From IMG/VR virus record IMGVR_UViG_3300033150_000277, positions 1-23,638 of that record: a DNA stretch of 23,638 nucleotides; one strand, 5' to 3'. Both the position numbers and the translations under genes were made by a program. Under the pieces are notes generated by a model, which saw nothing but the letters and a program-made list of their open reading frames with translations, made no database searches and had not been told where the DNA came from. The DNA is from a virus. Below, one piece after another: positions 5,367 through 22,460 of this stretch (its first letter is position 1; every line of letters begins with the position of its first letter).

Positions 5367-6468
5367 TGAATTAGCACTGGAGAAATGGAATAATGGAGAG
5401 AGGAATAAAACACAGATAGCTAGAGAAGTAAAGGAAGAGCTCGGATTAGATGGTAAGGTAGACCAAATCCGTAAGAACATATCCAAGTATATACGTAGGC
5501 GTGAGTCCTCCGCACTCTTTGATGAGTGTGAACAAAAGGGATTACCTTTTGATAATGTCAGTAACTACTGGTATAAAGGTAAACACTTCTCTATACACCT
5601 TAAGGGCGATAAGGCTCCCACGTATGAGGAGATACGTGAGGACCTAATTAGTGACCTAAAAAAATACTCACCTAAGTTTCCGAAGATTAAACGCACCCCT
5701 TGTAAAGATGGACACCTACTAGTGGTAGACCCTGCCGATATTCACATTGGAAAACTAGCTAGAGCTATAGAGGGTGAGGAATACAACACTAGCATAGCCG
5801 TGAAGCGTGTTAAGGAGGGCGTACAGGGCATTTTAGACAAATCATCAGGGTGGAACATAGACCAGATATTATTTATCGGTGGGAACGATATTTTACACGT
5901 AGATACTCCAAGTAATACCACTACTAGAGGCACCCATCAAAACATGGATAGTATGTGGTATGAGGCATTTCTATCTGCCAAGCGTTTATACGTAGAGTGT
6001 CTAGAGATGCTACTAGCGGTAGCTCCTGTACATTTTACTTTTAACCCCTCTAACCACGACTACATTTCAGGGTTTATGTTATCCGATACCATCAGTGCGT
6101 GGTTTCGAAACTGCAAGGATATTACATTTGATTGTTCTATTCGTCACCGTAAGTATTTTTTGTATGGTAAAAATCTTATTAGCACCACCCACGGGGATGG
6201 GGCTAAGATGGCTGACCTACCATTAATTATGGCTCAGGAGGCTAAGAAGGAGTGGGCTATATCAGACCATAGGTATATATACACCCACCATGTACATCAT
6301 AAAACATCTAAGGATTTCTGTGGGGTAACGTGTGAGTCTCTGCGTAGTCCATCGGGTAGTGACTCGTGGCATTCTAAGGCAGGATACATAGGGAATCCTA
6401 AAGCTGTCGAGGGTTTTTTACACCATAAGGAACATGGACAAATTTCTAGATTGACGCATTTGTTTTAA
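5353..6468 (+). CDS. HTH plus calcineurin-like metallophosphoesterase
   Basis: This 371-aa protein couples a DNA-binding-like N-terminus to a binuclear-metal phosphoesterase. Residues about 14-50 (NKTQIAREVKEELGL...YIRRR) look like a helix-turn-helix. The phosphoesterase motifs follow in order: D129-x-H131 in PADIHIG; D179 in GGND; N234-H235-D236 in PSNHD; H280 in THGDG; and H313-V-H315. All expected metal ligands are retained, although the glycines of canonical GNH and GHxH are replaced by Ser and His. The family includes Mre11/SbcD-type nucleases as well as phosphatases, and related proteins occur in phages of Bacteroidota; the substrate is unknown. The ATG at 5353 follows an A-rich leader. 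It is the last gene of the + strand block, and its stop overlaps that of the convergent giant gene. Confidence 0.85.
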   Translation: MKNCNELALEKWNNGERNKTQIAREVKEELGLDGKVDQIRKNISKYIRRRESSALFDECEQKGLPFDNVSNYWYKGKHFSIHLKGDKAPTYEEIREDLISDLKKYSPKFPKIKRTPCKDGHLLVVDPADIHIGKLARAIEGEEYNTSIAVKRVKEGVQGILDKSSGWNIDQILFIGGNDILHVDTPSNTTTRGTHQNMDSMWYEAFLSAKRLYVECLEMLLAVAPVHFTFNPSNHDYISGFMLSDTISAWFRNCKDITFDCSIRHRKYFLYGKNLISTTHGDGAKMADLPLIMAQEAKKEWAISDHRYIYTHHVHHKTSKDFCGVTCESLRSPSGSDSWHSKAGYIGNPKAVEGFLHHKEHGQISRLTHLF

Positions 6469-9400
6469 TCTTCGTATTTTACCTCTTTTAACTCTACTTC
6501 TTCTAACTCGCCAACCTCTTTTAACTCTGCGTCTTTTATTACGGTTGTTTTTTTAGGTTCACCTAGTAGCTCCTGTAGTTTAGTACTTTTCTTATCTTTA
6601 AACATATCTTTTAAGTACATTCTACGTATATCTTTATAAAAAGGAATAAAACCTAAGTTTCCTAATCCTTCTAACACCATTCTTTCTTCTAACTCCTTTT
6701 GATATTTAGCTCTAGTTTCTTTTTGGGCGGCTGTTTGAGATTTAGAAGTAACTTTTATTAATCTACTCAAGGTTCTAGATAAAGGAGATAATGGTCCTGC
6801 AAATAAATATAAGAATATTTCTTCTGGAGATTTTGTTGACAACATTTCATCTGTAACTTGTGAAAAAACTATACTGTGCTTATAGGGGTCATATTTTTTA
6901 TTATTTCTTAAATCTTCTAAATATTCTGAATTAAATTTTTCTAAACCATAATTTATAAATACTTTAGGCACATTACCTAATCCACGACCTGTTAATAAAG
7001 ATAATGGTGCTCCAACTAATTGTCTTTTAATTATACTACCTAAATCCTCATCTTCATCACCTATTCCAAATAGAGCATCAAATGCTGAGGTAAGTAAGGA
7101 ATATAATACCATATAAGACGCCATCCTCATTTGCACAGCTATTATAGTAGCTAAAGCTTGAGTTTTTGATATTTCACCTGCTTTAAATAAAGAAACTATG
7201 GCATTTCTAGCAGTGGCATATTCATATTGAGAAAATCGTGCCATGTAAGAATTAGCTATTTTATATAATTGTGAAAATGTACTTTCGTTAGGTGTGGGTA
7301 TATTTTTAGGTATAACATTAAAAGGGTTAGCACTAGTAGCCATTTTCACCGATTGTTCATCTGCGTAATTAGTTGATTCCTTTATTTCAGATTTATATTT
7401 ATCAGTTAAATATTTTGATTTTCCTTCACCTATTTCTTCAAAATCTTTACTGTTTAAATCTACACCTGTTAATTCTTTAAACTTTTTAGAAAAATTTCCA
7501 AACCATAAAGGTCTAGATATTGCTTTATCTGGAGAAGATATTAATGTATCTGAAATTTTACCAGCAAAATCTTTTAATTGTCTCACACCTGTAAATTGAG
7601 ATAAATATTGAGCTTTATCTACTACATTACTTAAGGTTTTAGAAGATTTAGGTACTCCTGTATACAAAATATTTGAATCAGCCATTTTCCCTGTTAGGTT
7701 TTTAGTGTCGTACAACTTCATAGTTTCCGAACTACCTAAATTTTCCATAGCATTTAACCCCTCTGAACCCATAACAAAACTTCCATACTTACTTATTCCT
7801 TGAGAAAGACCTTGTGGATTAGAAATAGTGCCATAGAGTAAATTAGTTCCTAGTTCAGCCGCAGCTCTAGGGACAGAAGCTAATGCGGCTTGATATCCTA
7901 ATTTTTGCAATTTTTTAATTACAGTAGAAGCAACATCATATTGAACAAATGAGTCAGCAAAAGTTTTTCTTAATACTTCTTCTACACTTTTTTCTAATGC
8001 GGAAATAGATTCCTTGGATATTTTTTTTGATTTTGGGTTTTCAAATATTTTATCTTTAGCTTTTCTTAATGAAGAATTTACTGTTTTTATAGTTTCTGTC
8101 ATATAGAAATCTAATAATGTTTCTCTAGCACCACTTAATGTTGAAGAAATAGGGTCGAAATTAATAGCTTTAGCCCCTGGAGTACGTTCTCTTAGTGTTC
8201 CAGCTTTAGTGGACGGGTTAACTAATTTATTGGTTTTATTAAACAAATCTTCAGGTTGTTCTTTTTGCGTTACACTATGATGAACGTAGTTATTAATGGG
8301 TTTTATTTTTTCTCCTCTTAAAACAGATGAAGTAAACACTGCTTTAGGTTCTAAAAAAACATTTATCTCATCCAAAAGTTTTAGTGCTTTTTTTTCATTT
8401 TGGGTAAAACTATCTTCTATTTTTTCCATATTTATTTCCCCATCCACGGAAAATTCGTTTTTTATTTCTTCTAATAGTTTTATATCTCGTTGATTAAGCC
8501 TTTCACTACTCTCTAACCTTTCAATTGATTCGATTGTTTTATTTATAAAATCAATAGCTGGAGCAACTTGTTTGTTATTTGGATTTGATTCAAACTCACG
8601 CTGCAATCTATAAGTCATTATTTTATACTTAGACTTTTGAACTTTATTATTTGATTTCTGTATAGTTGGTATTTTAGTTTTATATAATAATGACTCAGCT
8701 GCTTCTATTTTTGATGAGACGTTTTTAGCAAAATTAGATTGAAATTTTGAATAAGAAGTAGCTAATTTACCTAGAGTATTATTCCATATAGTTTTACTAT
8801 TAAAATTACCTAGTATGTCATCCCAATAAAAAGTAGGGGTTCCTCTAAGAGATTCTTGCATTTTACTTTTATCTGAAAACAAACTTTTTAATTTACCGTA
8901 TACTCTAGAAAAACCTGTTAATATATTTTTCTCTTTTACCGCAGAAACTATGTTCTCTATATTTTTTGAGGATTTATTAGATTCTACACTTATTTTTAAA
9001 TCCATAGCAAATTTAGGAATATACCCATTAGATATATTTTCTTTAATAACTTTTAAGTTTTCTAAATTAGAGTAGTCTTTAGTTCCATCTTTTTTCTCCT
9101 TTACTAAACCTAGTAAATCATCTTTACTTAACTGATTTAAATACTTACCTAAATCTTTACCTCTTTCATCATACGTATTTTCAAGACTAGCTTTATTAGA
9201 TATTATGTTATCTAAATACCCATCTAAGTCTGCTTCTATTTCTTCGTTTAATTTAGCAGGTAAAGACTCATTAACCTCTTCATTAACCTCTATATCTACA
9301 CTATTAATAATATCAGAAGCTGTCTCCATAACTTCACCAGCCTCTGGTAGGCTAAGAACTTTTTTTCTTTGACCAAAACTTTCTAATAATTTAAAATAAG

Positions 9401-12400
9401 AATCAAATTTATTTAAAGGAATAATAGATGGGTCTATGGCAAATAACTCATCTAAAATTGATTGTAAATCAGGAGATGCTCCAATTTTATTCTTTAAGTT
9501 TTTCTTAGCTTGTCTTAATAATTTTTTTGATTTAGAAATTTTATCAGCTAATTCAGCTTTTTTATAAACTTTATCTATGTATTTAATAAAAGCATCTACT
9601 GACTTAGGGTTGTAGAGATTTACGGAACTTATTTTATTTATTATTACTCGTGCCTGATTTGATGTTATCTTACCTGTTTTTACAAGCTCTTTTACTTGGT
9701 TTGCAAGTTCTTTACGTTTAGTATTTACATCCCTTACAGCCCCTCTAGCAGCCCTTGCTTCTAATTTTATTTGGTCTTTAAGTGCAGCCATCTCATCAAC
9801 TACTACTTTTTTCTTCTTAGGTTTTCTTAGTATCTTTTTAACTGGCGGTGCCTTAGGTATCTTTATTTCTAGCTTTTCATTTATTTCTCTTACCGCACTT
9901 TCTCTTTCAATATCTGTAGCTTCTTCATAAAATTTACTTCCTTGTAAATAACCTTGTACAGACTCTAATATAATTTCTGGATTAGTGTCTTCACCAAAAT
10001 TTCTACCCTCTACCTTAGTAATTATTTCATCTACAATATTATCAACTCTTTCCTTAGATGGCTTTTCCTCTACCACTTCTTCAGCTACTGGTGTTTCCTC
10101 TACAACCTCTTCAGTAACTACTTCTTCTGTAGGAGTCTCTTCTATTATTTCTTCCGTAACCTCAGTAGTGGGGGTGGTGAGTTCTTCGATAAGAGACTCA
10201 TCTTTTATTACATACTGCTGTTGTTTCTTCTGTCCTTTTTTTAATACACCATCTACCGTTACTAACTTAACAACTTGTGCATCTGAATTGTTTATTGCCT
10301 CTACCTCCGCAGCTCTATATTCAGGTAATGTCATTCCTTTACCATCAATTTCTACCACCTCAACAGTGGTTCCTTCTGGTAGTATAACTTCAGCAACCCC
10401 TTCTTCCTTACCGTATTCTTCAGCTAAACTTTCATCTACAGATGAAAAAACACCTTCAGCACCTTCATGTGCATTTATACGAAATCCTTGTAAATCTTTT
10501 TTCCCCCCTATACCTTTAAATATCTTAACAGGTTTAGTGGTTGTAATAATACCTTCCGTAACATCTGTTACTTCTTGCTTGCCTTCACTCAAAACCTCAG
10601 GTGTTACTTCCACCTCTTCACTAGCCTCAGTAGTGGGAGTTTCTTCTACTACTTCTTCGGTAACTACTTCTTCTGTTGTAGTTTTAGTTTCACTTATTCT
10701 CTCTAATCGAGTATCAATATCTGATATACGTGTTCTTTCTTTTTTAGTTAAACTTTCGTTCTTACCAGCAATTTGTTTTTGTAATGCGGCTTTTTCTTGC
10801 AATAATGCAAAAGCTTCTTGTTGTCCAGCTACATCTATATCCTTAGGTATCTGATTAAAAATAGACACCATTTCATTCATTCTTTTTATCTCATTCTCAG
10901 CCTTACTTTTAGTTGTGGTTCCATCGGCTAGTTCAATTTTTATTTTATCCGTGTATATTTGTCTAGTTTTAGGATTTGTAACTAAATTTTTTGCTAGCTC
11001 AAATTGTTCAATATTTAATTTATCTATACCATTTTGTTTGTAAGCTTGGATAGAAGCTGTCATGCCTCCCATACCTCCGCCAGCTAAAAAACCTATTTTA
11101 GCAGATTGTAATGAATTAGCTAAAGTAATCTCAGTGCTTTCTTTACTAAAAAACTCTTTTTCTTTTAAAGTGTTGTAGATGTCTTTTATACTTCTTTCAG
11201 ATATATCTTGTAAAACCTCAGTTTCAGCCTCTATTAATCCTGAACCTATAACCTTAACCCCACCTTTTACTAATATATTTTTCACCTCTAGTTCTATTAA
11301 ATTTTCTAAAGATTTATAACTAGCTTTAGGACCTAATTTACCTAATGCACGAAATAAAATACTTTTAGAAACCCCTGTTTTATTTAATATTTTAGACACA
11401 CCTAATGATTCTAATATACCAGATGTTAAAGAAACTAAACCTGCTACACCTGCTTTTTCAGCTTCTGAAACATTTTTAAATTCCTCAATAGATTCCATTT
11501 CTTTAAAAACTGCATCATTAATTTGCAAACCAAAAGATATTGCCATTACATCACTTCGACCACCACTAGCTAACATGTGGGCTCCCATTTCAGCCATAGC
11601 AGTAGAAACCATACCCCATGTTGTTTTTTGAAATTGTTCCTGGTATTCATTAGTAACACCTCCTGTTATTTGGTCCTGTAGAGATGTTCTAATCATAGGT
11701 TTAAGTTCATTTTTTATTTGTTTAGATACTCTATCCCTATACTCCGAATTAGTTTCATCCTTTCTTTTTCCCGTAAATTCCCCCTCCTCATTAATTAAAG
11801 GCATTAAAGAATCTAAACCTTCCTCACCCATTACACTAGTAATTATATCTATCATACCACCTGATAAAGAAGCGTTTTTAGCATCAAATGTATTCACAAA
11901 ACTTTTCCACCAAGATTTTACCCAATTACCCTTTTGAGCCTCTAAAGCCACATGTTCCCCCATAATTTCATTTAGCTTAAACTTAACGTCATCTAAATGA
12001 GTTTTATCTTCTCTTAATTCACTTAACTGAGATTCTAACCCAGTGGCTCTTTCCGCAAATAACTCTTCTTGGGTTTTTATTTGTTCAGGAGTGAGTAATC
12101 CGTTCTTAGCGTTATCGATAAATAAATTATAATCTTTTTCAAATTGTTTTACATTTTTTTCGTATTCTAACCCTTTGTCTTGAAATCTTCCAATCCTGCT
12201 ATTCATATCTTTAATAGACTCATTAACAAGGTTTTCATCATAATACTTTAAAAATTCTTTTTTATCTTTTTTAGTTGATTCATAAATTGTTTCAATCGTT
12301 ATATCTTCATACTCTTCTTTATTAGCTTGTAAAAAAGATTTTAGTTTTTGAGCCTCTTCTATAGCACCATCTTCTGTCCACGTGTCGGTATCTATCATGG

Positions 12401-13034
12401 TTTCCTTACCATTAGCAGCCGTAACATTCATAGTCCCTAATCCCGTGTCTTCAAATGTAAAGCCGTGGTTGTTATATATTTTCTGAAGACCCTCGGCAGC
12501 TACCTCATTATCTGCCATCATTATCTCTCTACCATAAGCATCTAGAATAGATAATGGTATTTCATTTTGTTTTTTTAACTCTGTAACATTAGATGTAACT
12601 TTAAACGATTCAGCTAATACTTGGTCTATTTGTGATTGTTGTTGAGCTAATTTATCAGGGTCTAACTCTACCTCCACTTCCTCTTCAGTAGTTTGCTCAA
12701 CTACCTCTGGAGTTTCACTAGTAGGCTCTTGGGTAGTTTCAACTACTTCGTCTGAAACGGAAACATCCGAAACACCAGGTGTCTCCACTTCTTCTGTATC
12801 CGATGTAGTAACGACTTCTTCTTGTGGAGAATCCAACTCCGTAGTTTCGTCTTTTTTTTTTACCAGATTTGTAAAATCTTCTAAAGAACCTAATGTCTCT
12901 TCTCCAAAGTTTTTATGGAATTTATTAATATATGAATCATCATTTGTTATTAAATCAACAAAATCTTCATACTTACCAAACACCTCTTCTCCACCTAACT
13001 GAGAATACAAATCATTTATATATTTTTCATCCAT
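6465..13034 (-). CDS. Giant internal virion/ejection-type protein (2189 aa) with candidate ART-like domain
   Basis: This is probably a very large virion protein ejected with the DNA, by analogy with T7 gp16. The sequence shows: two N-terminal repeats (about 5-32 and 35-61) sharing YIN...GEE...G...EDF; an acidic linker (about 60-130); helical regions; hydrophobic and Gly-rich segments near 527-547 and 642-660 (IGFLAGGGMGGM); a candidate ADP-ribosyltransferase-like domain at about 835-950 (FKGIG, GVFSSVDESLAEEYG, QYVIKD) between E/V/T-rich linkers; a Lys-rich stretch near 1058-1085; long helices; and hydrophobic helices at about 1957-1990. No lysozyme motif was recognised. It is last in the - strand operon, eight bases after the 582-aa gene. 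The role is inferred from size, position and membrane-interacting segments; the ART assignment rests on pattern only. Confidence 0.75.
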   Translation of the reverse strand: MDEKYINDLYSQLGGEEVFGKYEDFVDLITNDDSYINKFHKNFGEETLGSLEDFTNLVKKKDETTELDSPQEEVVTTSDTEEVETPGVSDVSVSDEVVETTQEPTSETPEVVEQTTEEEVEVELDPDKLAQQQSQIDQVLAESFKVTSNVTELKKQNEIPLSILDAYGREIMMADNEVAAEGLQKIYNNHGFTFEDTGLGTMNVTAANGKETMIDTDTWTEDGAIEEAQKLKSFLQANKEEYEDITIETIYESTKKDKKEFLKYYDENLVNESIKDMNSRIGRFQDKGLEYEKNVKQFEKDYNLFIDNAKNGLLTPEQIKTQEELFAERATGLESQLSELREDKTHLDDVKFKLNEIMGEHVALEAQKGNWVKSWWKSFVNTFDAKNASLSGGMIDIITSVMGEEGLDSLMPLINEEGEFTGKRKDETNSEYRDRVSKQIKNELKPMIRTSLQDQITGGVTNEYQEQFQKTTWGMVSTAMAEMGAHMLASGGRSDVMAISFGLQINDAVFKEMESIEEFKNVSEAEKAGVAGLVSLTSGILESLGVSKILNKTGVSKSILFRALGKLGPKASYKSLENLIELEVKNILVKGGVKVIGSGLIEAETEVLQDISERSIKDIYNTLKEKEFFSKESTEITLANSLQSAKIGFLAGGGMGGMTASIQAYKQNGIDKLNIEQFELAKNLVTNPKTRQIYTDKIKIELADGTTTKSKAENEIKRMNEMVSIFNQIPKDIDVAGQQEAFALLQEKAALQKQIAGKNESLTKKERTRISDIDTRLERISETKTTTEEVVTEEVVEETPTTEASEEVEVTPEVLSEGKQEVTDVTEGIITTTKPVKIFKGIGGKKDLQGFRINAHEGAEGVFSSVDESLAEEYGKEEGVAEVILPEGTTVEVVEIDGKGMTLPEYRAAEVEAINNSDAQVVKLVTVDGVLKKGQKKQQQYVIKDESLIEELTTPTTEVTEEIIEETPTEEVVTEEVVEETPVAEEVVEEKPSKERVDNIVDEIITKVEGRNFGEDTNPEIILESVQGYLQGSKFYEEATDIERESAVREINEKLEIKIPKAPPVKKILRKPKKKKVVVDEMAALKDQIKLEARAARGAVRDVNTKRKELANQVKELVKTGKITSNQARVIINKISSVNLYNPKSVDAFIKYIDKVYKKAELADKISKSKKLLRQAKKNLKNKIGASPDLQSILDELFAIDPSIIPLNKFDSYFKLLESFGQRKKVLSLPEAGEVMETASDIINSVDIEVNEEVNESLPAKLNEEIEADLDGYLDNIISNKASLENTYDERGKDLGKYLNQLSKDDLLGLVKEKKDGTKDYSNLENLKVIKENISNGYIPKFAMDLKISVESNKSSKNIENIVSAVKEKNILTGFSRVYGKLKSLFSDKSKMQESLRGTPTFYWDDILGNFNSKTIWNNTLGKLATSYSKFQSNFAKNVSSKIEAAESLLYKTKIPTIQKSNNKVQKSKYKIMTYRLQREFESNPNNKQVAPAIDFINKTIESIERLESSERLNQRDIKLLEEIKNEFSVDGEINMEKIEDSFTQNEKKALKLLDEINVFLEPKAVFTSSVLRGEKIKPINNYVHHSVTQKEQPEDLFNKTNKLVNPSTKAGTLRERTPGAKAINFDPISSTLSGARETLLDFYMTETIKTVNSSLRKAKDKIFENPKSKKISKESISALEKSVEEVLRKTFADSFVQYDVASTVIKKLQKLGYQAALASVPRAAAELGTNLLYGTISNPQGLSQGISKYGSFVMGSEGLNAMENLGSSETMKLYDTKNLTGKMADSNILYTGVPKSSKTLSNVVDKAQYLSQFTGVRQLKDFAGKISDTLISSPDKAISRPLWFGNFSKKFKELTGVDLNSKDFEEIGEGKSKYLTDKYKSEIKESTNYADEQSVKMATSANPFNVIPKNIPTPNESTFSQLYKIANSYMARFSQYEYATARNAIVSLFKAGEISKTQALATIIAVQMRMASYMVLYSLLTSAFDALFGIGDEDEDLGSIIKRQLVGAPLSLLTGRGLGNVPKVFINYGLEKFNSEYLEDLRNNKKYDPYKHSIVFSQVTDEMLSTKSPEEIFLYLFAGPLSPLSRTLSRLIKVTSKSQTAAQKETRAKYQKELEERMVLEGLGNLGFIPFYKDIRRMYLKDMFKDKKSTKLQELLGEPKKTTVIKDAELKEVGELEEVELKEVKYED
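10094..10676. repeat. Direct repeat pair flanking the candidate ART domain
   Basis: Positions 10094-10130 and 10640-10676 match at 33 of 37 bases, with the last 16 identical. On the - strand both encode TEEVVTEEVVEETP. The offset is 546 bases (182 codons), so recombination between the copies would remove the candidate ART-like domain in frame. Confidence 0.8.
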
Positions 13035-16880: not shown

Positions 16881-19800
16881 TTAAGGACACACTATCTTCT
16901 CTACTACCTGACCTACACTGTCAATTCGTATTACATTATTCTTAACCCCTGTCAATTCATCGGTTACATACCATAAGTATCCACCGTTGAATATACGCTG
17001 TTCACACTCACAGAAATGATATATAAAGTCATTTACTTCTGGATACTCTTTCTGTCCATCATGATAAAATATAGAGTAGGAAGGCGTAACAGCACACGCT
17101 AAACCACTAGTAGTTTCAGGACTCGCACTATCCATGTTAAATCTTCTATGAGTGGTACTAGGATTAATAGTTATAGTAATAGGTGTAGAAACACTAGTTC
17201 CAAAACAATTGGTTGCTGTTATGTTAAATGAATATACACCAGATTTAATAGTACTTCCACTTAATGTACCATTTAACGTATCGAATGATATTCCTGGAGG
17301 TAACACCTCTCCATCACATGTTCCTTTCAATGCAGATGTTCCTGTACCAGATACTAATACTGGAGCTGTTGTAGTACATATCTCTTGAACCTCATAAACA
17401 CTCACTGTATGTCGTGTAGTGTTTCCAGTAGTACAGTCGGTAGCTGTAAATACAGCACCATCAGTTCCACCATTTAATTCATAAGTGTCACATGTGGTAA
17501 CAATTGCCCAACTAATAGGATTGTTGGTTGCAGGGATATTTAATACTAGACCCTCACCTATCTCAAGCTCAATAGGGGGCTGAGTAATAACAGGCACGGC
17601 AACCTCAGTACATGATGAACAACTTCCTACCGCCTGAACTAACCCTCCCGTATCAATCACAGCATAATCTGTTGTAGGTGCAGGACCTATTCTATGGAAG
17701 GCATTATTACCATCATACGTATTTAATCCACTTAACTCATTATATACCACATCACCTACCGCTGGTAATGCAGCAGCCCCTGAGTGATACCTAGTATCTG
17801 GAGATGTAGTAGCTGCACAGACACTTGTTACTGTATCATCAGTAGTATCTATAGCAAATGATTGTAGCGTACTAGCTCCTGCTTGAGCTGTAAAAGCTCC
17901 TCCACCCTCAGCAATAACCTCTACCTCACCAGGAAGTAAATCATTTTTAAAGAAAGTAATATCTGTAAGAACAGCTACATTAATAGCTTGCCCCACTATT
18001 CTATTATTCCACTTAACATAAAAGCTGTTAACCCCTGAAGGTGTACATCTAATAGTTATATTCCCTCGCCTGTTAGTGTAGTCTACAATAGAATTAACCG
18101 TTCCACTAATAGATGCACTACTTGTAAGTGTAGCAGGTGGTGTAATATTATTTCTATAGTCATATATTAGATACAAGAACTTCTCCGTAGTTCTAGTAAA
18201 TGTAAATGACCCCTCATAGTTACTACCTACAATAGCAGGTACAGTAGCTGTGGATAGGGCTATTAATGTTTTTATATCCTCCTCTGTATACTCTACATTA
18301 GAAACTAAGTATCTTAAAGAATTTCCAAAATTAGGATTAAATGGTTTAATAGTAGAAGTACCTGTCAGTCCTGCTTTTAGTGTAACTGTATCTCCAGATG
18401 CAGGCATAGAATCTACACCTTCAAATGAATTAAAACTGTTATCTACCGCTAATGACCTAGGGGTAAAGGCTGTGTTATCAAAAACTATATCACCACCTGT
18501 AGTATTACTAGTGAAATCATATTGCTGATTAGAAACTAATCCACTATCCACACCATTATTAATTACCATTACTTTTCTAATAAGTCTGGTTTTTCCTGAT
18601 TGAGTAATAAGAAATGGATAACTTACACCACAAGCTGTAAATGCAATAGTAACTGTTCTGTTAGCACCTGTTCCATTAGCGGCAAAATCAACCGTTATAA
18701 TTTCTGAATCCTCTCCTGAATATGGAGATGCTTGACCATTAACTGTTACCCATGCACCTACCCAGGTTACTGTCCATTCTGTATTAGATGTTATATTAAA
18801 CGACTCCGTACTTGCACTACTACTTATATTAGGTCTAAATCCAAGGTCCGCATTAAAAATACACGGAGAAACTGGAGTATCATTATTAGCAAGTACATAT
18901 CTCTCTTTAAATGGGTCGATTGCTCCTATCTTTTGAGTGTTGGTATTAGATACAAATAAATCCTTAAAATAATCCCTCATACCCATAGAAGATATTTCAA
19001 ACATACCATTATTACTTAATCTCATTACAGCCCCTCGCCTAGCATCTGTAAAGTACATATCATTACCCCACGTAGCAAAACTCTCTGGGTTTTTACTTAT
19101 TCCATATTGACCTGTAAAGGTGATTTGTGTTCCTAATACCTGTGGTATAGATGCTATAGTACCACCACCTACTGCATCACTAAGTAAGTTTTTACCGTAT
19201 AATATTTTAGATACTTTATTCTCTTGAAAGGCTACTAAGTCGGTATCTCTAGCGTGTAGTTTTTGAATAGAACCAAAGAACTTATCTAAGTACTTAAAGT
19301 TAGCTAACGATAGATTAAACTCATTTAGGTTATTTATACCTGTGTTTTCTCTATATATACCACTATAGGTTATAGCTTCCTCTACTCGTTGTTGTTTATA
19401 ATCCTCTATAACAGAACTGGTTCTTGGGGAATACTTTAATGTAGGAGCATTAAAGTCACCACGTATTCTAAGTCCCTCTACACCATTACCAAAACAATAG
19501 GCATTATACATACTGTTTTCTGTGTCAGATGTAGTTGCCGAAGGTTTAGTTGAGGTATTTAAACTAACTACCGCTGGAGAATTTGATGTTAAGTTTTGAT
19601 TGGAAGACGCACCTAAGTTACCTTGGTGAGCCCCATTAATAATATCTAAAGTTTCACTCAGTTCGTAATAAATATCCGCAGGATTTTCTATAGGTAAGGT
19701 TTCGAAAACATTAGTATTTGTTTGTTGTATAATTTCAAACTTAACCGCTATATATCCTCTTTTATCTATAGGTCCTTGGTGAGGAGCCCCTGTTCCTCTA

Positions 19801-22460
19801 ATACCCATAAATACTGTTTTACCAGCAGTATACTCCGACCAGTTACTTGCGGTGTTTGGTGGAGGATTAGGACTGCCTGTAGTTTGAGCTAATTGATTAA
19901 AATTATCACCAGTTCCTGTTCCACTACCACCTTGTTTAACGCCAAATCCTCTTCTAAAGAAAACCTGAGAAAAACCCAAATCAGTACCGTCAGTATGTAA
20001 GTGTACAAAATCTCTATAAGCCCCACTTTCCCAAAACCACTCTTCTATATTAACATATTGTAATGGAGAGGTCCACTCTTGCCATTCCTGCCAATTATCT
20101 CCAGCACCAGTTGGACTTACACCTCCACTAGTACGTTGAACACCACTTACATTCTTTATTCGCATTCTTATTCTAGAACCAGCAGATATAGTCCTGTCAA
20201 TAGTAAATTTATTGGAAGCAGCAGCAGTTTGTGGGTAACTCACTGTTTCTCCTGTAGGTGTGGTAAACCAACTATTATGTCCTGGTACAATAGCCGCTTG
20301 TTGAGGAGTGTTGTTATCGTCCCAATTAATAAACTCATCAAAAATATTCTTCCAGTTTTTACAATGTACATTTACCACCCAATAATCTCCTATTTTATAA
20401 CCACTAGAAATAGGGAATTTTATTTTAAATATAATAGGAGGTAGGGGCGATAAATTAGTGTTACGTATCTCATTTCCATTCACCGCATCTATAGGTGTAT
20501 TTTCAGTTCCTTGACACCTTTGATATCCTGCGTCAGTAAAAACATCCCAATGAAAAGTATTAGCACCATCAATTACTATTTTATATCTAGCATCACTTAG
20601 CCACTGGTCGTGAGTTTCATTTTTACCATAATAATTCGTTCCACTAGTGAAAGGAATTAAATCTAATTCATAGTGAGTTGCAGAGTTTCCATAATAAACA
20701 GGGGTGTTTACAATAGATATTCTTTCCCTATTATTACCAGTAATATCAGGTTGTATATCTATCCAATCTCTCTCGGTAGAGAGGGGGTGATTAGTTCCGA
20801 TGGGATATTTACTCCAATGACTAGTGATATAATTTCTATTAAATACATCAGAACCATTAAATAAAGTGCTATCATCTACTTTTATCTTAAAATACAATCC
20901 TTCTGCTTGTGATTCCCCATTATCTAAAAAATCTTCAGGTTGACTTTGTATATCTAAAATTTTATATTGACTAATACTTTCAGTAGCCGTACCTTCAGCA
21001 CTCTTACAGATAATATAATCATTAATCTTTAATTTGTCTATATCTGACCTATTTATCCTAAACCACCTAAAAACTTCATCAATAAAGTAATATATAGGGA
21101 ATATATTATAGTAATCTCCCTTAGCTTGCTTAATAAATATTCTATATTTTTTAGCGAAAGCTGGGGCTTCATTATTTATAGATACCCTAATATCATTAGC
21201 AGTAAGTGAATTAGTAGGAGGAATATGAACCGTATTATTAGTAACATTAGATGTTAATACCGTAGTCATCCTACTGTAGTCATCTAAATAAACTAACCCT
21301 ATCTCATAATCTCTATCACTCCTAAATGTAGGAAGTGGTATGGAAGTTGGTAATGGTAAAGGTAATACTTCTAATTGATAATCTATATCTATAGGTGTTC
21401 CATTACTATCCGCTATATTATAAAACTGAACATAGTTTCCATAAGCAATTCTACTACCTATTAATTCTTGTGCTTTTGCTTTTAATGGAACATTATCAAA
21501 TAATCTAGTAATCTCATCTGGAGGTAATACCGTGTATATTTTATTATTATCAAATGTATTAGTAAACCTACCATTAGCATCAATACCTAAAGAAGGGTCA
21601 TTAATAATATTTTCAATTTTAAATGAATCAATAACATTAATATTAGTACTAGCTGTATCTCTAAAGAGTAATTGAATTTCTTTTATCCTAGGGTCTGGCA
21701 CCCATCCAGTCCCTGGATTAGAGCCGTTTATAAAATAATCTACATCTACCCTATTATATGTATTAACCATAGACTGAAAATCTCCTTCACCAAAATCATA
21801 ATTATATATCCCAGGTCTAAAAGCAGTGGATGAAAAGGGAGATATAGCACTATACTCATCATTCTCATACTTATACCTACAAGCAAACTGTAAAAATTTA
21901 TACCTTAAATTATCTTCTTGATTTGCTGTTATTGAGTTTTTTAAAGTAATTAAAGGAGAGTTTAACGGTGGTTTTACTATAACGGAAATATCATCCTCAA
22001 TAAAACCATTAAGAGCATAATATTTTTTTACATTTAATCTACGTGGAGGATTTAAATTATCGGTCCAGAATAATAAATCATCTATAATATTAACACCAGT
22101 TATTAAATAATTAGCATCAAACTTTAATACCCTACCTTTAGTATCTTTTAATAAAGTAGTGGTAATACTATTAATTTCATTATACTTTAGTACGTAATCA
22201 AAATCAGAATCTGTAACAAACCAATATATATTATTATTAGCCTCATCAGCAATTGCACCAATAGTTTTAGCACCTGTACCTGTAAATGTTTGATTACTAG
22301 CGTTGGTATTACCCTTGATATTCTCTAACGCCCCTACTCCTGCACCCTCAGATGCAGACACTTCAATATTCAACGCATCCCTATACTGACCGTCTGGAAT
22401 CAGACGTTCATCAAGGTCTTTGTTCATTATACCTTGTATAAAACTTTTAATTAACCTCAT
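16881..22460 (-). CDS. Giant tail protein, stabilization/muzzle-like, with BACON-like and Ig-like domains (1859 aa)
   Basis: This is probably a major distal tail component that carries receptor-binding modules. The N-terminus (SFIQGIMNKDLDERLIPDGQ) and a beta-propeller-like region (IYWFVTD, LLFWTDN) resemble the tail stabilization proteins of crAss-like and related phages. Around 1040-1150 come KLHARDTDLVAFQENKV and YFTDARRGAVMRLS, also typical of that family. Residues 1205-1289 form a BACON-like domain (W1229, W1237, ITQSG at the end). Residues about 1720-1765 match a He_PIG-type Ig domain (LPPGISFD, GTLSG, SFNITATN). Two related modules lie at about 1535-1616 and 1774-1859. No catalytic depolymerase motif was recognised. 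The start overlaps the preceding adaptor gene's stop in ATGA. Glycan binding is inferred from the BACON and Ig folds. Confidence 0.8.
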   Translation of the reverse strand: MRLIKSFIQGIMNKDLDERLIPDGQYRDALNIEVSASEGAGVGALENIKGNTNASNQTFTGTGAKTIGAIADEANNNIYWFVTDSDFDYVLKYNEINSITTTLLKDTKGRVLKFDANYLITGVNIIDDLLFWTDNLNPPRRLNVKKYYALNGFIEDDISVIVKPPLNSPLITLKNSITANQEDNLRYKFLQFACRYKYENDEYSAISPFSSTAFRPGIYNYDFGEGDFQSMVNTYNRVDVDYFINGSNPGTGWVPDPRIKEIQLLFRDTASTNINVIDSFKIENIINDPSLGIDANGRFTNTFDNNKIYTVLPPDEITRLFDNVPLKAKAQELIGSRIAYGNYVQFYNIADSNGTPIDIDYQLEVLPLPLPTSIPLPTFRSDRDYEIGLVYLDDYSRMTTVLTSNVTNNTVHIPPTNSLTANDIRVSINNEAPAFAKKYRIFIKQAKGDYYNIFPIYYFIDEVFRWFRINRSDIDKLKINDYIICKSAEGTATESISQYKILDIQSQPEDFLDNGESQAEGLYFKIKVDDSTLFNGSDVFNRNYITSHWSKYPIGTNHPLSTERDWIDIQPDITGNNRERISIVNTPVYYGNSATHYELDLIPFTSGTNYYGKNETHDQWLSDARYKIVIDGANTFHWDVFTDAGYQRCQGTENTPIDAVNGNEIRNTNLSPLPPIIFKIKFPISSGYKIGDYWVVNVHCKNWKNIFDEFINWDDNNTPQQAAIVPGHNSWFTTPTGETVSYPQTAAASNKFTIDRTISAGSRIRMRIKNVSGVQRTSGGVSPTGAGDNWQEWQEWTSPLQYVNIEEWFWESGAYRDFVHLHTDGTDLGFSQVFFRRGFGVKQGGSGTGTGDNFNQLAQTTGSPNPPPNTASNWSEYTAGKTVFMGIRGTGAPHQGPIDKRGYIAVKFEIIQQTNTNVFETLPIENPADIYYELSETLDIINGAHQGNLGASSNQNLTSNSPAVVSLNTSTKPSATTSDTENSMYNAYCFGNGVEGLRIRGDFNAPTLKYSPRTSSVIEDYKQQRVEEAITYSGIYRENTGINNLNEFNLSLANFKYLDKFFGSIQKLHARDTDLVAFQENKVSKILYGKNLLSDAVGGGTIASIPQVLGTQITFTGQYGISKNPESFATWGNDMYFTDARRGAVMRLSNNGMFEISSMGMRDYFKDLFVSNTNTQKIGAIDPFKERYVLANNDTPVSPCIFNADLGFRPNISSSASTESFNITSNTEWTVTWVGAWVTVNGQASPYSGEDSEIITVDFAANGTGANRTVTIAFTACGVSYPFLITQSGKTRLIRKVMVINNGVDSGLVSNQQYDFTSNTTGGDIVFDNTAFTPRSLAVDNSFNSFEGVDSMPASGDTVTLKAGLTGTSTIKPFNPNFGNSLRYLVSNVEYTEEDIKTLIALSTATVPAIVGSNYEGSFTFTRTTEKFLYLIYDYRNNITPPATLTSSASISGTVNSIVDYTNRRGNITIRCTPSGVNSFYVKWNNRIVGQAINVAVLTDITFFKNDLLPGEVEVIAEGGGAFTAQAGASTLQSFAIDTTDDTVTSVCAATTSPDTRYHSGAAALPAVGDVVYNELSGLNTYDGNNAFHRIGPAPTTDYAVIDTGGLVQAVGSCSSCTEVAVPVITQPPIELEIGEGLVLNIPATNNPISWAIVTTCDTYELNGGTDGAVFTATDCTTGNTTRHTVSVYEVQEICTTTAPVLVSGTGTSALKGTCDGEVLPPGISFDTLNGTLSGSTIKSGVYSFNITATNCFGTSVSTPITITINPSTTHRRFNMDSASPETTSGLACAVTPSYSIFYHDGQKEYPEVNDFIYHFCECEQRIFNGGYLWYVTDELTGVKNNVIRIDSVGQVVEKIVCP

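What the first reader, a model, noticed from the sequence alone, without database searches (positions are those of the whole stretch)
10190..10530. Candidate ADP-ribosyltransferase-like domain inside a giant ejection-type protein
Residues about 835-950 of the 2189-aa protein read like an ART fold of the polyvalent-protein type: FKGIG at the first strand, GVFSSVDESLAEEYG, a VAEVILP strand, a possible ExE pair E910/E912, and QYVIKD at the end. The first position has Lys where active families usually have His or Arg, so activity is uncertain. If injected with the DNA, such a domain could modify a host target at infection.
Basis: partly seen in the sequence, partly recalled or inferred. Interest (0 to 1): 0.7.

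Follow-up and report, generated by a model that had tools for sequence, protein, structure and literature searches.

The report
Swappable ART-fold cargo in giant protein
A giant phage protein, probably injected into the host, carries a small domain shaped like the enzymes that attach ADP-ribose to other molecules; this domain sits in a slot where related phages carry different cargo, and its expected active-site residues are consistently replaced by others, so its chemistry is an open question.

Summary
In detail: window 10529-10176 (minus strand, residues 836-953 of a 2189-aa protein) encodes a discrete ~120-aa domain. Two AlphaFold models (mean pLDDT 76-77) match ADP-ribosyltransferases (ARTs): the top BFVD hit is a 'PolyVal ADP-Ribosyltransferase' (probability 1.00), and the first six PDB hits of the second model are all ARTs. 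A profile comparison with 13 accepted ART-PolyVal domains beats all 200-300 column shuffles.

Twenty-one further viral contigs carry the domain (22 sequences, 16 non-redundant). K840, K845, H856, F863, E910 and Q940 are invariant in all 22; the ART-PolyVal His is always Lys. This is a constrained, non-canonical subfamily, not a decayed ART.

The domain is also a mobile cargo cassette. In the closest relative (L017, about 75% identical DNA on both sides) this segment is replaced by unrelated polyvalent modules. Slot edges coincide in six giants, cargo runs from ~210 to ~1640 aa, direct repeats flank the slot, and 177 of 231 pairs of domain-bearing giants share nothing outside the domain. Catalysis and injection are inferred, not shown.

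The parts
6465..13034 (-). 2189-aa giant protein (polyvalent / ejection type) that carries the domain
   Evidence: ORF; residues 1348-2151 match PHROG 32588 at 5e-118; distant homology (21% id, E 2e-4) to Flavobacterium phage elemo giant annotated 'structural protein'
12849..13034 (-). N-terminal tag, residues 1-62: duplicated ~30-aa element ending in KKKD
   Evidence: 33 of 39 non-redundant giant N-termini carry KKK[DEGNF] or [EV]KKN at residues 39-89; shuffles give mean 1.0, maximum 5. Role inferred
10692..12848 (-). left scaffold, residues ~63-781
   Evidence: 66.6% id to L017 over residues 6-777; 25-30% id to L037, L041, L044, L045, L050, all ending at window residue 777-781
10065..10691 (-). 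cargo slot, residues 782-990
   Evidence: left homology ends at 777-781 and right homology resumes at 991-1002 in six giants; slot length 210 aa (window) to ~1640 aa (L045)
10085..10635 (-). DNA segment replaced in the closest relative L017 (551 nt here, 1238 nt there)
   Evidence: blastn: collinear 74.7% id up to 10084 and 76.4% id from 10636
10176..10589 (-). ART-fold domain, residues 816-953
   Evidence: AF2 models, Foldseek, hhalign with controls, 22-member family
10500..10520 (-). strand-1 motif FKGIGGK (839-845); K840 sits where ART-PolyVal has His; K840, G841, K845 invariant
   Evidence: 22-row alignment; profile alignment FKG to YHG
10467..10469 (-). H856, invariant His in the loop between strands 1 and 2
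   Evidence: 22 of 22
10413..10454 (-). strand-2/helix motif GVFSSVDESLAEEY (861-874); F863 at the Tyr position of H-Y-E ARTs
   Evidence: F863 22 of 22; aligned to the GFYFT motif of ART-PolyVal
   Evidence: AF2 helix; E912 not conserved
10203..10217 (-). last strand, Q940-K944 (QYVIK); Q940, I943, K944 invariant
   Evidence: aligned with the last strand of ART-PolyVal
10636..10682 (-). linker repeat on the left of the slot (TTTEEVVTEEVVEETP)
   Evidence: 47-nt direct repeat, 85% identical to 10090-10136
10090..10136 (-). linker repeat on the right of the slot (TPTEEVVTEEVVEETP)
   Evidence: 10077-10130 cross-matches L017's left linker at 83%
10615..10640 (-). inner linker repeat, left (TPTTEASEE)
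   Evidence: 26-nt direct repeat, 85% identical to 10150-10175; 10597-10644 matches L017's internal linker at 87.5%
10150..10175 (-). inner linker repeat, right (TPTTEVTEE)
6582..10064 (-). right scaffold, residues 991-2151
   Evidence: 72% id to L017, 28-50% id to about 30 giants in viral contigs

Best explanation
The feature is an ART-superfamily domain of a subfamily not matched by current libraries. It is carried as exchangeable cargo in the middle of a giant virion-associated (polyvalent) protein of a podovirus-like phage, probably of Bacteroidota. SHOWN by computation: the domain is real and under purifying selection, its predicted fold is ART-like, its active-site positions are conserved but non-canonical (Lys in place of His, Phe in place of Tyr), and it occupies a slot with fixed edges whose content differs between related phages. 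INFERRED: the giant protein is packaged by its conserved N- and C-terminal parts and ejected into the host with the DNA, and the cargo acts early on a host or anti-phage factor. INFERRED and least certain: the domain binds NAD or a related adenine nucleotide with a rearranged pocket (K840, K845, H856, E910 and Q940 are candidates) and either transfers or hydrolyses ADP-ribose or sequesters the nucleotide. I put ADP-ribose transfer or hydrolysis at about 0.4. Linker repeats at the slot edges probably let homologous recombination swap cargo.
For: Fold: BFVD rank 1 is 'PolyVal ADP-Ribosyltransferase', E 1.5e-3, probability 1.00, with more ART-PolyVal-like hits below it. PDB rank 1 is an ADP-ribosyltransferase catalytic domain for both models (PMC13171429), and with the 10-sequence model ranks 1-6 are all ARTs, five of them PARP1 catalytic-domain chains. 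hhalign against 13 ART-PolyVal domains: score 28.0, E 4.4e-4, none of 200 column shuffles reaches it (maximum 18.05); repeated with 10 rows (0 of 200) and 22 rows (0 of 300). Constraint: 22 members, K840/G841/K845/G850/H856/F863/P886/E910/S917/T926/Q940/K944 invariant; dN/dS 0.08. Cassette: swap against L017 at DNA level; shared slot edges in six giants; L006/L007 cassette 97.7% id while neighbouring genes are 90-91% and the rest of the giant gene barely aligns; 177 of 231 giant pairs share nothing outside the domain; flanking direct repeats. Same slot in L045 holds a canonical ART-PolyVal, E 7e-16. Context: adjacent genes are PHROG virion structural and short tail fibre proteins.
Against: Foldseek TM-scores are only 0.4-0.55 and no PDB E-value is below 0.06. 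Models rest on 8-10 sequences (pLDDT 76-77), and the loop with H856 is poorly predicted. Pfam ART-PolyVal hits stay below its cut-off (E 0.04-0.17). The strand-1 His of the accepted family is absent in all 22 members. Packaging, ejection and any enzymatic activity were not tested. The window contig and all relatives are uncultured viral contigs.
Confidence: 0.68

Rival explanations
1. An ordinary active mono-ADP-ribosyltransferase: Lys takes over the role of His in holding NAD, and D928 or Q940 serves as third residue, so the domain ADP-ribosylates a host protein as T4 Alt does.
For: ART fold; D928 is conserved in 21 of 22 and is aligned to the Asp of the GYDG motif by hmmsearch and hhalign; F at the Tyr position also occurs in accepted ART-PolyVal domains such as that of Roseovarius phage RPP1 (GLFFT).
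Against: His is invariant in 13 of 13 accepted ART-PolyVal domains and Lys in 22 of 22 here; the family was defined by H, Y and D (PMC5512222). The third position is ambiguous: the secondary structure favours residue 920 (Q or D) or Q940.
Confidence: 0.3
2. A catalytically dead ART fold kept as a binding module (host protein, nucleotide or ADP-ribose signal) or as an anti-defence sponge.
For: Replacement of the H-Y-E/D residues; human PARP9 and PARP13 are ARTs that lack ADP-ribosylation activity (PMC10789625).
Against: A cluster of invariant polar residues (K840, K845, H856, E910, S917, T926, Q940, K944) looks more like a retained active or ligand site than a decayed one; this alone cannot separate binding from catalysis.
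Confidence: 0.35
3. A structural spacer of the virion protein with no effector role.
For: It lies in a protein probably assembled into the virion.
Against: The same position tolerates unrelated modules of 210-1640 aa and the domain recurs in giants that are otherwise unrelated, which is not expected of a needed structural part.
Confidence: 0.1
4. Not an ART fold; the resemblance is a chance pattern of strands.
For: Modest TM-scores and sub-threshold Pfam scores.
Against: Three profile comparisons with different row sets beat all shuffles; the fold libraries converge on ARTs.
Confidence: 0.07

Closest known systems
ART-PolyVal, Pfam PF18760 (ADP-ribosyltransferase domain of polyvalent proteins; prototype Roseovarius Plymouth podovirus 1 vRNAP, CBX87992.1)
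   Same: Order of motifs (x-[YF]-x-G strand 1; G-[VIL]-[YF] strand 2 then A-x-x-Y helix; last strand [YF]-[VI]-[VI]), fold, and residence inside giant phage proteins next to other modules
   Different: His of strand 1 is Lys in all members; no GYDG motif; last strand reads Q[YI][VI]IK; scores stay below the Pfam cut-off
ARTD / PARP and diphtheria-toxin-like ARTs (H-Y-E class)
   Same: Top solved-structure matches
   Different: Triad residues replaced; no sequence similarity detectable by phmmer or hmmsearch
Polyvalent proteins of phages and conjugative elements (Iyer et al. 2017, PMC5512222)
   Same: Giant multidomain phage protein among virion genes; relatives carry LPD38, zincin-like HExxH stretches, ParB-like stretches and ART domains
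   Different: Here a slot with fixed edges and alternative cargo in an otherwise conserved scaffold can be delimited almost to the base; the window copy holds a single cargo domain
Cargo / ejection proteins of podoviruses (crAss001 cargo proteins, N4 vRNAP)
   Same: Conserved flanking regions with a variable middle; large proteins delivered at infection (PMC10172136, PMC5512222)
   Different: No packaging or ejection data for this protein

Membership tests
ART-PolyVal (PF18760) | score above the curated Pfam cut-off (31.2 bits) | tested here: not met
   13.1 bits, E 0.17 for the window domain; best member E 0.041; six-frame search of the window finds none
ART-PolyVal (PF18760) | His in strand 1 | tested here: not met
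   Lys in 22 of 22; His in 13 of 13 accepted members
ART-PolyVal (PF18760) | Tyr in strand 2 | tested here: not met
   Phe in 22 of 22, but accepted members also vary here (Y, F, W, L)
ART-PolyVal (PF18760) | Asp in strand 5 | tested here: inconclusive
   D928 conserved 21 of 22 and aligned to it by profiles, but the predicted secondary structure places residue 920 (Q or D) there
ART-PolyVal (PF18760) | residence in a polyvalent protein of a phage | tested here: met
ART superfamily (fold) | ART fold | tested here: met
   (predicted structures); profile comparison with shuffles
ART superfamily (fold) | binds NAD and transfers ADP-ribose | not testable with these tools
   needs biochemistry
ARTC / R-S-E class with ExE motif | Arg in strand 1, and ExE at the catalytic strand | tested here: not met
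   Lys at strand 1; E912 not conserved and E910/E912 lie in a helix
Polyvalent proteins | large phage protein combining unrelated domains, encoded with virion genes | tested here: met
Polyvalent proteins | delivered into the host with the DNA | not testable with these tools
   needs virion proteomics and translocation assay

The most novel reading that the evidence does not exclude
The 22-member family is a new functional class on the ART fold: a pocket built from invariant Lys, His, Glu and Gln in place of H-Y-E, acting on NAD or on a NAD-derived defence signal by a different chemistry, and spread between phages as an interchangeable ejected effector cassette through repeat-flanked slots in giant virion proteins.
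Probability: 0.22. Interest if true: 0.78.

Novelty: new variant of a known kind. Interest (0 to 1): 0.55.

Why it matters
Polyvalent proteins were proposed from domain architectures; here one cargo position can be delimited almost at base level and compared across relatives with different cargo. This gives a practical way to mine phage early effectors: read out what lies in the slot. A widespread ART-fold family with a conserved but non-canonical pocket would also test how far ART chemistry can move from H-Y-E and R-S-E, and whether phages inject proteins that act on NAD-based defences.

Tried and rejected
ExE pair E910/E912 as catalytic motif: rejected, E912 varies and both lie in a helix. 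Pfam, PHROGs, NCBIfam and PDB sequence searches: nothing above threshold for the domain. Bacterial genome contigs: no relatives of the domain or of the scaffold. Plasmids and isolate phage records: no convincing match. First hhalign with only six sequences was too weak (21 columns) and was replaced by a 13-sequence set. Considered a degenerate, drifting remnant: rejected because of 22-of-22 invariant positions and dN/dS 0.08. Considered an assembly chimera for the L017 swap: unlikely because other giants share the slot edges. The + strand ORF 9985-10854 (289 aa), antisense to the domain, was set aside as a mirror of the acidic/Val-rich coding strand; its conservation was not tested. Virion mass-spectrometry support for the elemo homologue was looked for in papers and not found.

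Full report
WHAT WAS CHECKED. The 2189-aa ORF lies at 13034..6465 on the minus strand, and the quoted motifs are at the stated residues. The window is the whole of a 23.6-kb virus record. Genes on the same strand next to the giant match PHROG virion structural proteins (249, 1859 and 306 aa) and a short tail fibre (179 aa); the opposite strand carries replication and recombination genes. The closest isolate phages found are Flavobacterium phages of the elemo group, distant relatives whose 3757-aa giant is annotated 'structural protein'. A Bacteroidota podovirus is therefore likely (inference).

FOLD. Sequence libraries give only sub-threshold ART-PolyVal hits (E 0.17 for the window domain, 0.041 for the best member). 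AlphaFold models from 8 and 10 homologues reach mean pLDDT 76 and 77 and pTM 0.73 and 0.69. The order of elements is strand (KIFKGI), strand (VFSS), helix (DESLAEEY), strand (VAEVIL), strand (TVEVVEI), helix (PEYRAAEVEAINNS), strand (VVKLVTV), strand (QYVIK). Foldseek against BFVD ranks 'PolyVal ADP-Ribosyltransferase' first (E 1.5e-3, probability 1.00), with further ART-PolyVal-like proteins below it. Against the PDB the first hit is the catalytic domain of a diphtheria-toxin-like ADP-ribosyltransferase for both models; with the second model ranks 1-6 are all ARTs (that toxin once, PARP1 catalytic domain five times), although E-values are only 0.07-0.31. As an independent test I assembled 13 accepted ART-PolyVal domains from isolate and crAss-like phages. 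hhalign gave score 28.0 and E 4.4e-4 over 88 collinear columns down to the last strand; none of 200 column shuffles reached it (maximum 18.05). It was repeated with 10 and 22 rows: 0 of 200 and 0 of 300. I take the ART fold as supported though not proven.

ACTIVE SITE. Twenty-two sequences (16 below 90% identity) were aligned. Invariant in all: K840, G841, K845, G850, H856, F863, A871, P886, E910, I914, S917, A919, V922, L924, T926, Q940, I943, K944. ART-PolyVal was defined by His (strand 1), Tyr (strand 2) and Asp (strand 5) (PMC5512222). The profile alignment puts FKG on YHG, so His becomes Lys, and GVF on GFY, so Tyr becomes Phe; Phe at that position also occurs in accepted members. The third position is ambiguous: D928 by profile alignment, residue 920 (Q or D) by secondary structure, or Q940 if the last strand is compared with the E-Y-I-V strand of PARP1 (that comparison is from my own knowledge). 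Purifying selection (dN/dS 0.08 between window and L001; dS 1.6 is near saturation) and the invariant polar residues argue against a decaying remnant.

CARGO SLOT. L017, from a 59-kb contig, encodes a giant 66.6% identical over residues 6-777 and 72% identical over 991-2145. In DNA the collinear match (about 75-76%) breaks at window 10635 and resumes at 10084; 551 nt here are replaced by 1238 nt there. The replacement holds other modules. One matches PHROG 3170 and has relatives in 200 phage records, including a protein annotated 'large polyvalent protein', and in MW202722, whose same giant protein also carries an ART-PolyVal-type match. A search with the C-terminal scaffold found 35 loci. In L017, L037, L041, L044, L045 and L050 the left homology ends at window residue 777-781, and the right one resumes at 991-1002. 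Cargo between the edges is about 210 aa in the window, 442 in L017, 517 in L037, 1132 in L050, 1430 in L044, 1499 in L041 and 1638 in L045. L045 has a canonical ART-PolyVal (E 7e-16) in the same slot. Two pairs of imperfect direct repeats flank the window cassette (47 nt and 26 nt, 85% identical), and the linkers cross-match those of L017 at 83-87.5%.

MOBILITY. Only 5 of the 22 domain-bearing giants match the window's C-terminal scaffold, though three of the others are cut off by a contig end soon after the domain (L001, L003, L068); 177 of 231 pairs have nothing alignable outside the domain. L006 and L007 share the cassette at 97.7% DNA identity, neighbouring genes at 90-91%, and little else of the giant gene. 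Several of these giants carry other typical polyvalent parts: LPD38 (E 8e-40) in L007, HExxH stretches in L007 and L004, a ParB-like stretch in L002.

MECHANISM. Most likely the protein is packaged and ejected by its conserved ends and delivers the slot domain to the cytoplasm, as N4 vRNAP and crAss-like cargo proteins are thought to be (PMC5512222, PMC10172136). What the domain does there is open: NAD-dependent modification with a rearranged pocket (about 0.4), binding or sequestration of a nucleotide or host factor (about 0.35), or something else. None of this was tested here.

NOVELTY. ART domains in polyvalent proteins are known. The Lys-type family and the near-base-level delimitation of an exchangeable cargo slot were not found in the libraries or in the papers I searched, a limited search. 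I rate it a new variant of a known kind.

Noticed in passing
window 12849-13034 and N-termini of the giants in L001-L081: Nearly all these giants start with a duplicated ~30-aa element followed by KKK[DE] or EKKN (33 of 39 non-redundant N-termini; shuffle mean 1.0, maximum 5), even when the rest is unrelated: a candidate packaging, processing or ejection tag.
   Followed up: partly
L017:8069-8890: Module that replaces the ART cassette matches PHROG 3170 (unknown function), contains HDFFGH and E-x-x-W-x-x-H stretches, and occurs in 200 phage records, 187 of them Mycobacterium phages.
   Followed up: partly
L017 residues ~805-935 of the giant: First replacement module (SGLFDGLKTQGKETMDLRG...) has no Pfam hit and no PHROG hit; identity unknown.
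   Followed up: no
L045 giant residues 1270-1418: Canonical ART-PolyVal (YHGS) in the cargo slot of a scaffold homologous to the window's: a natural comparison pair.
   Followed up: partly
L002 giant around residues 580-615: Another ART-like stretch (VYRGTALGNRSDKDGVTYVTPNRDYAAFYE), judged by eye, ahead of the family domain: possibly two ART-type modules in one protein.
   Followed up: no
L069 (giant of at least 4766 aa) and L070 (1638 aa): L069 is the longest carrier seen; L070 lacks the usual N-terminal tag and has a different start, so it may be another kind of element.
   Followed up: no
window 16881-22460, minus strand: 1859-aa virion structural protein (PHROG 14478) contains a BACON-like stretch (ITSNTEWTVTW...VTIAFTACGVSYPFLITQSG), judged by eye.
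   Followed up: no
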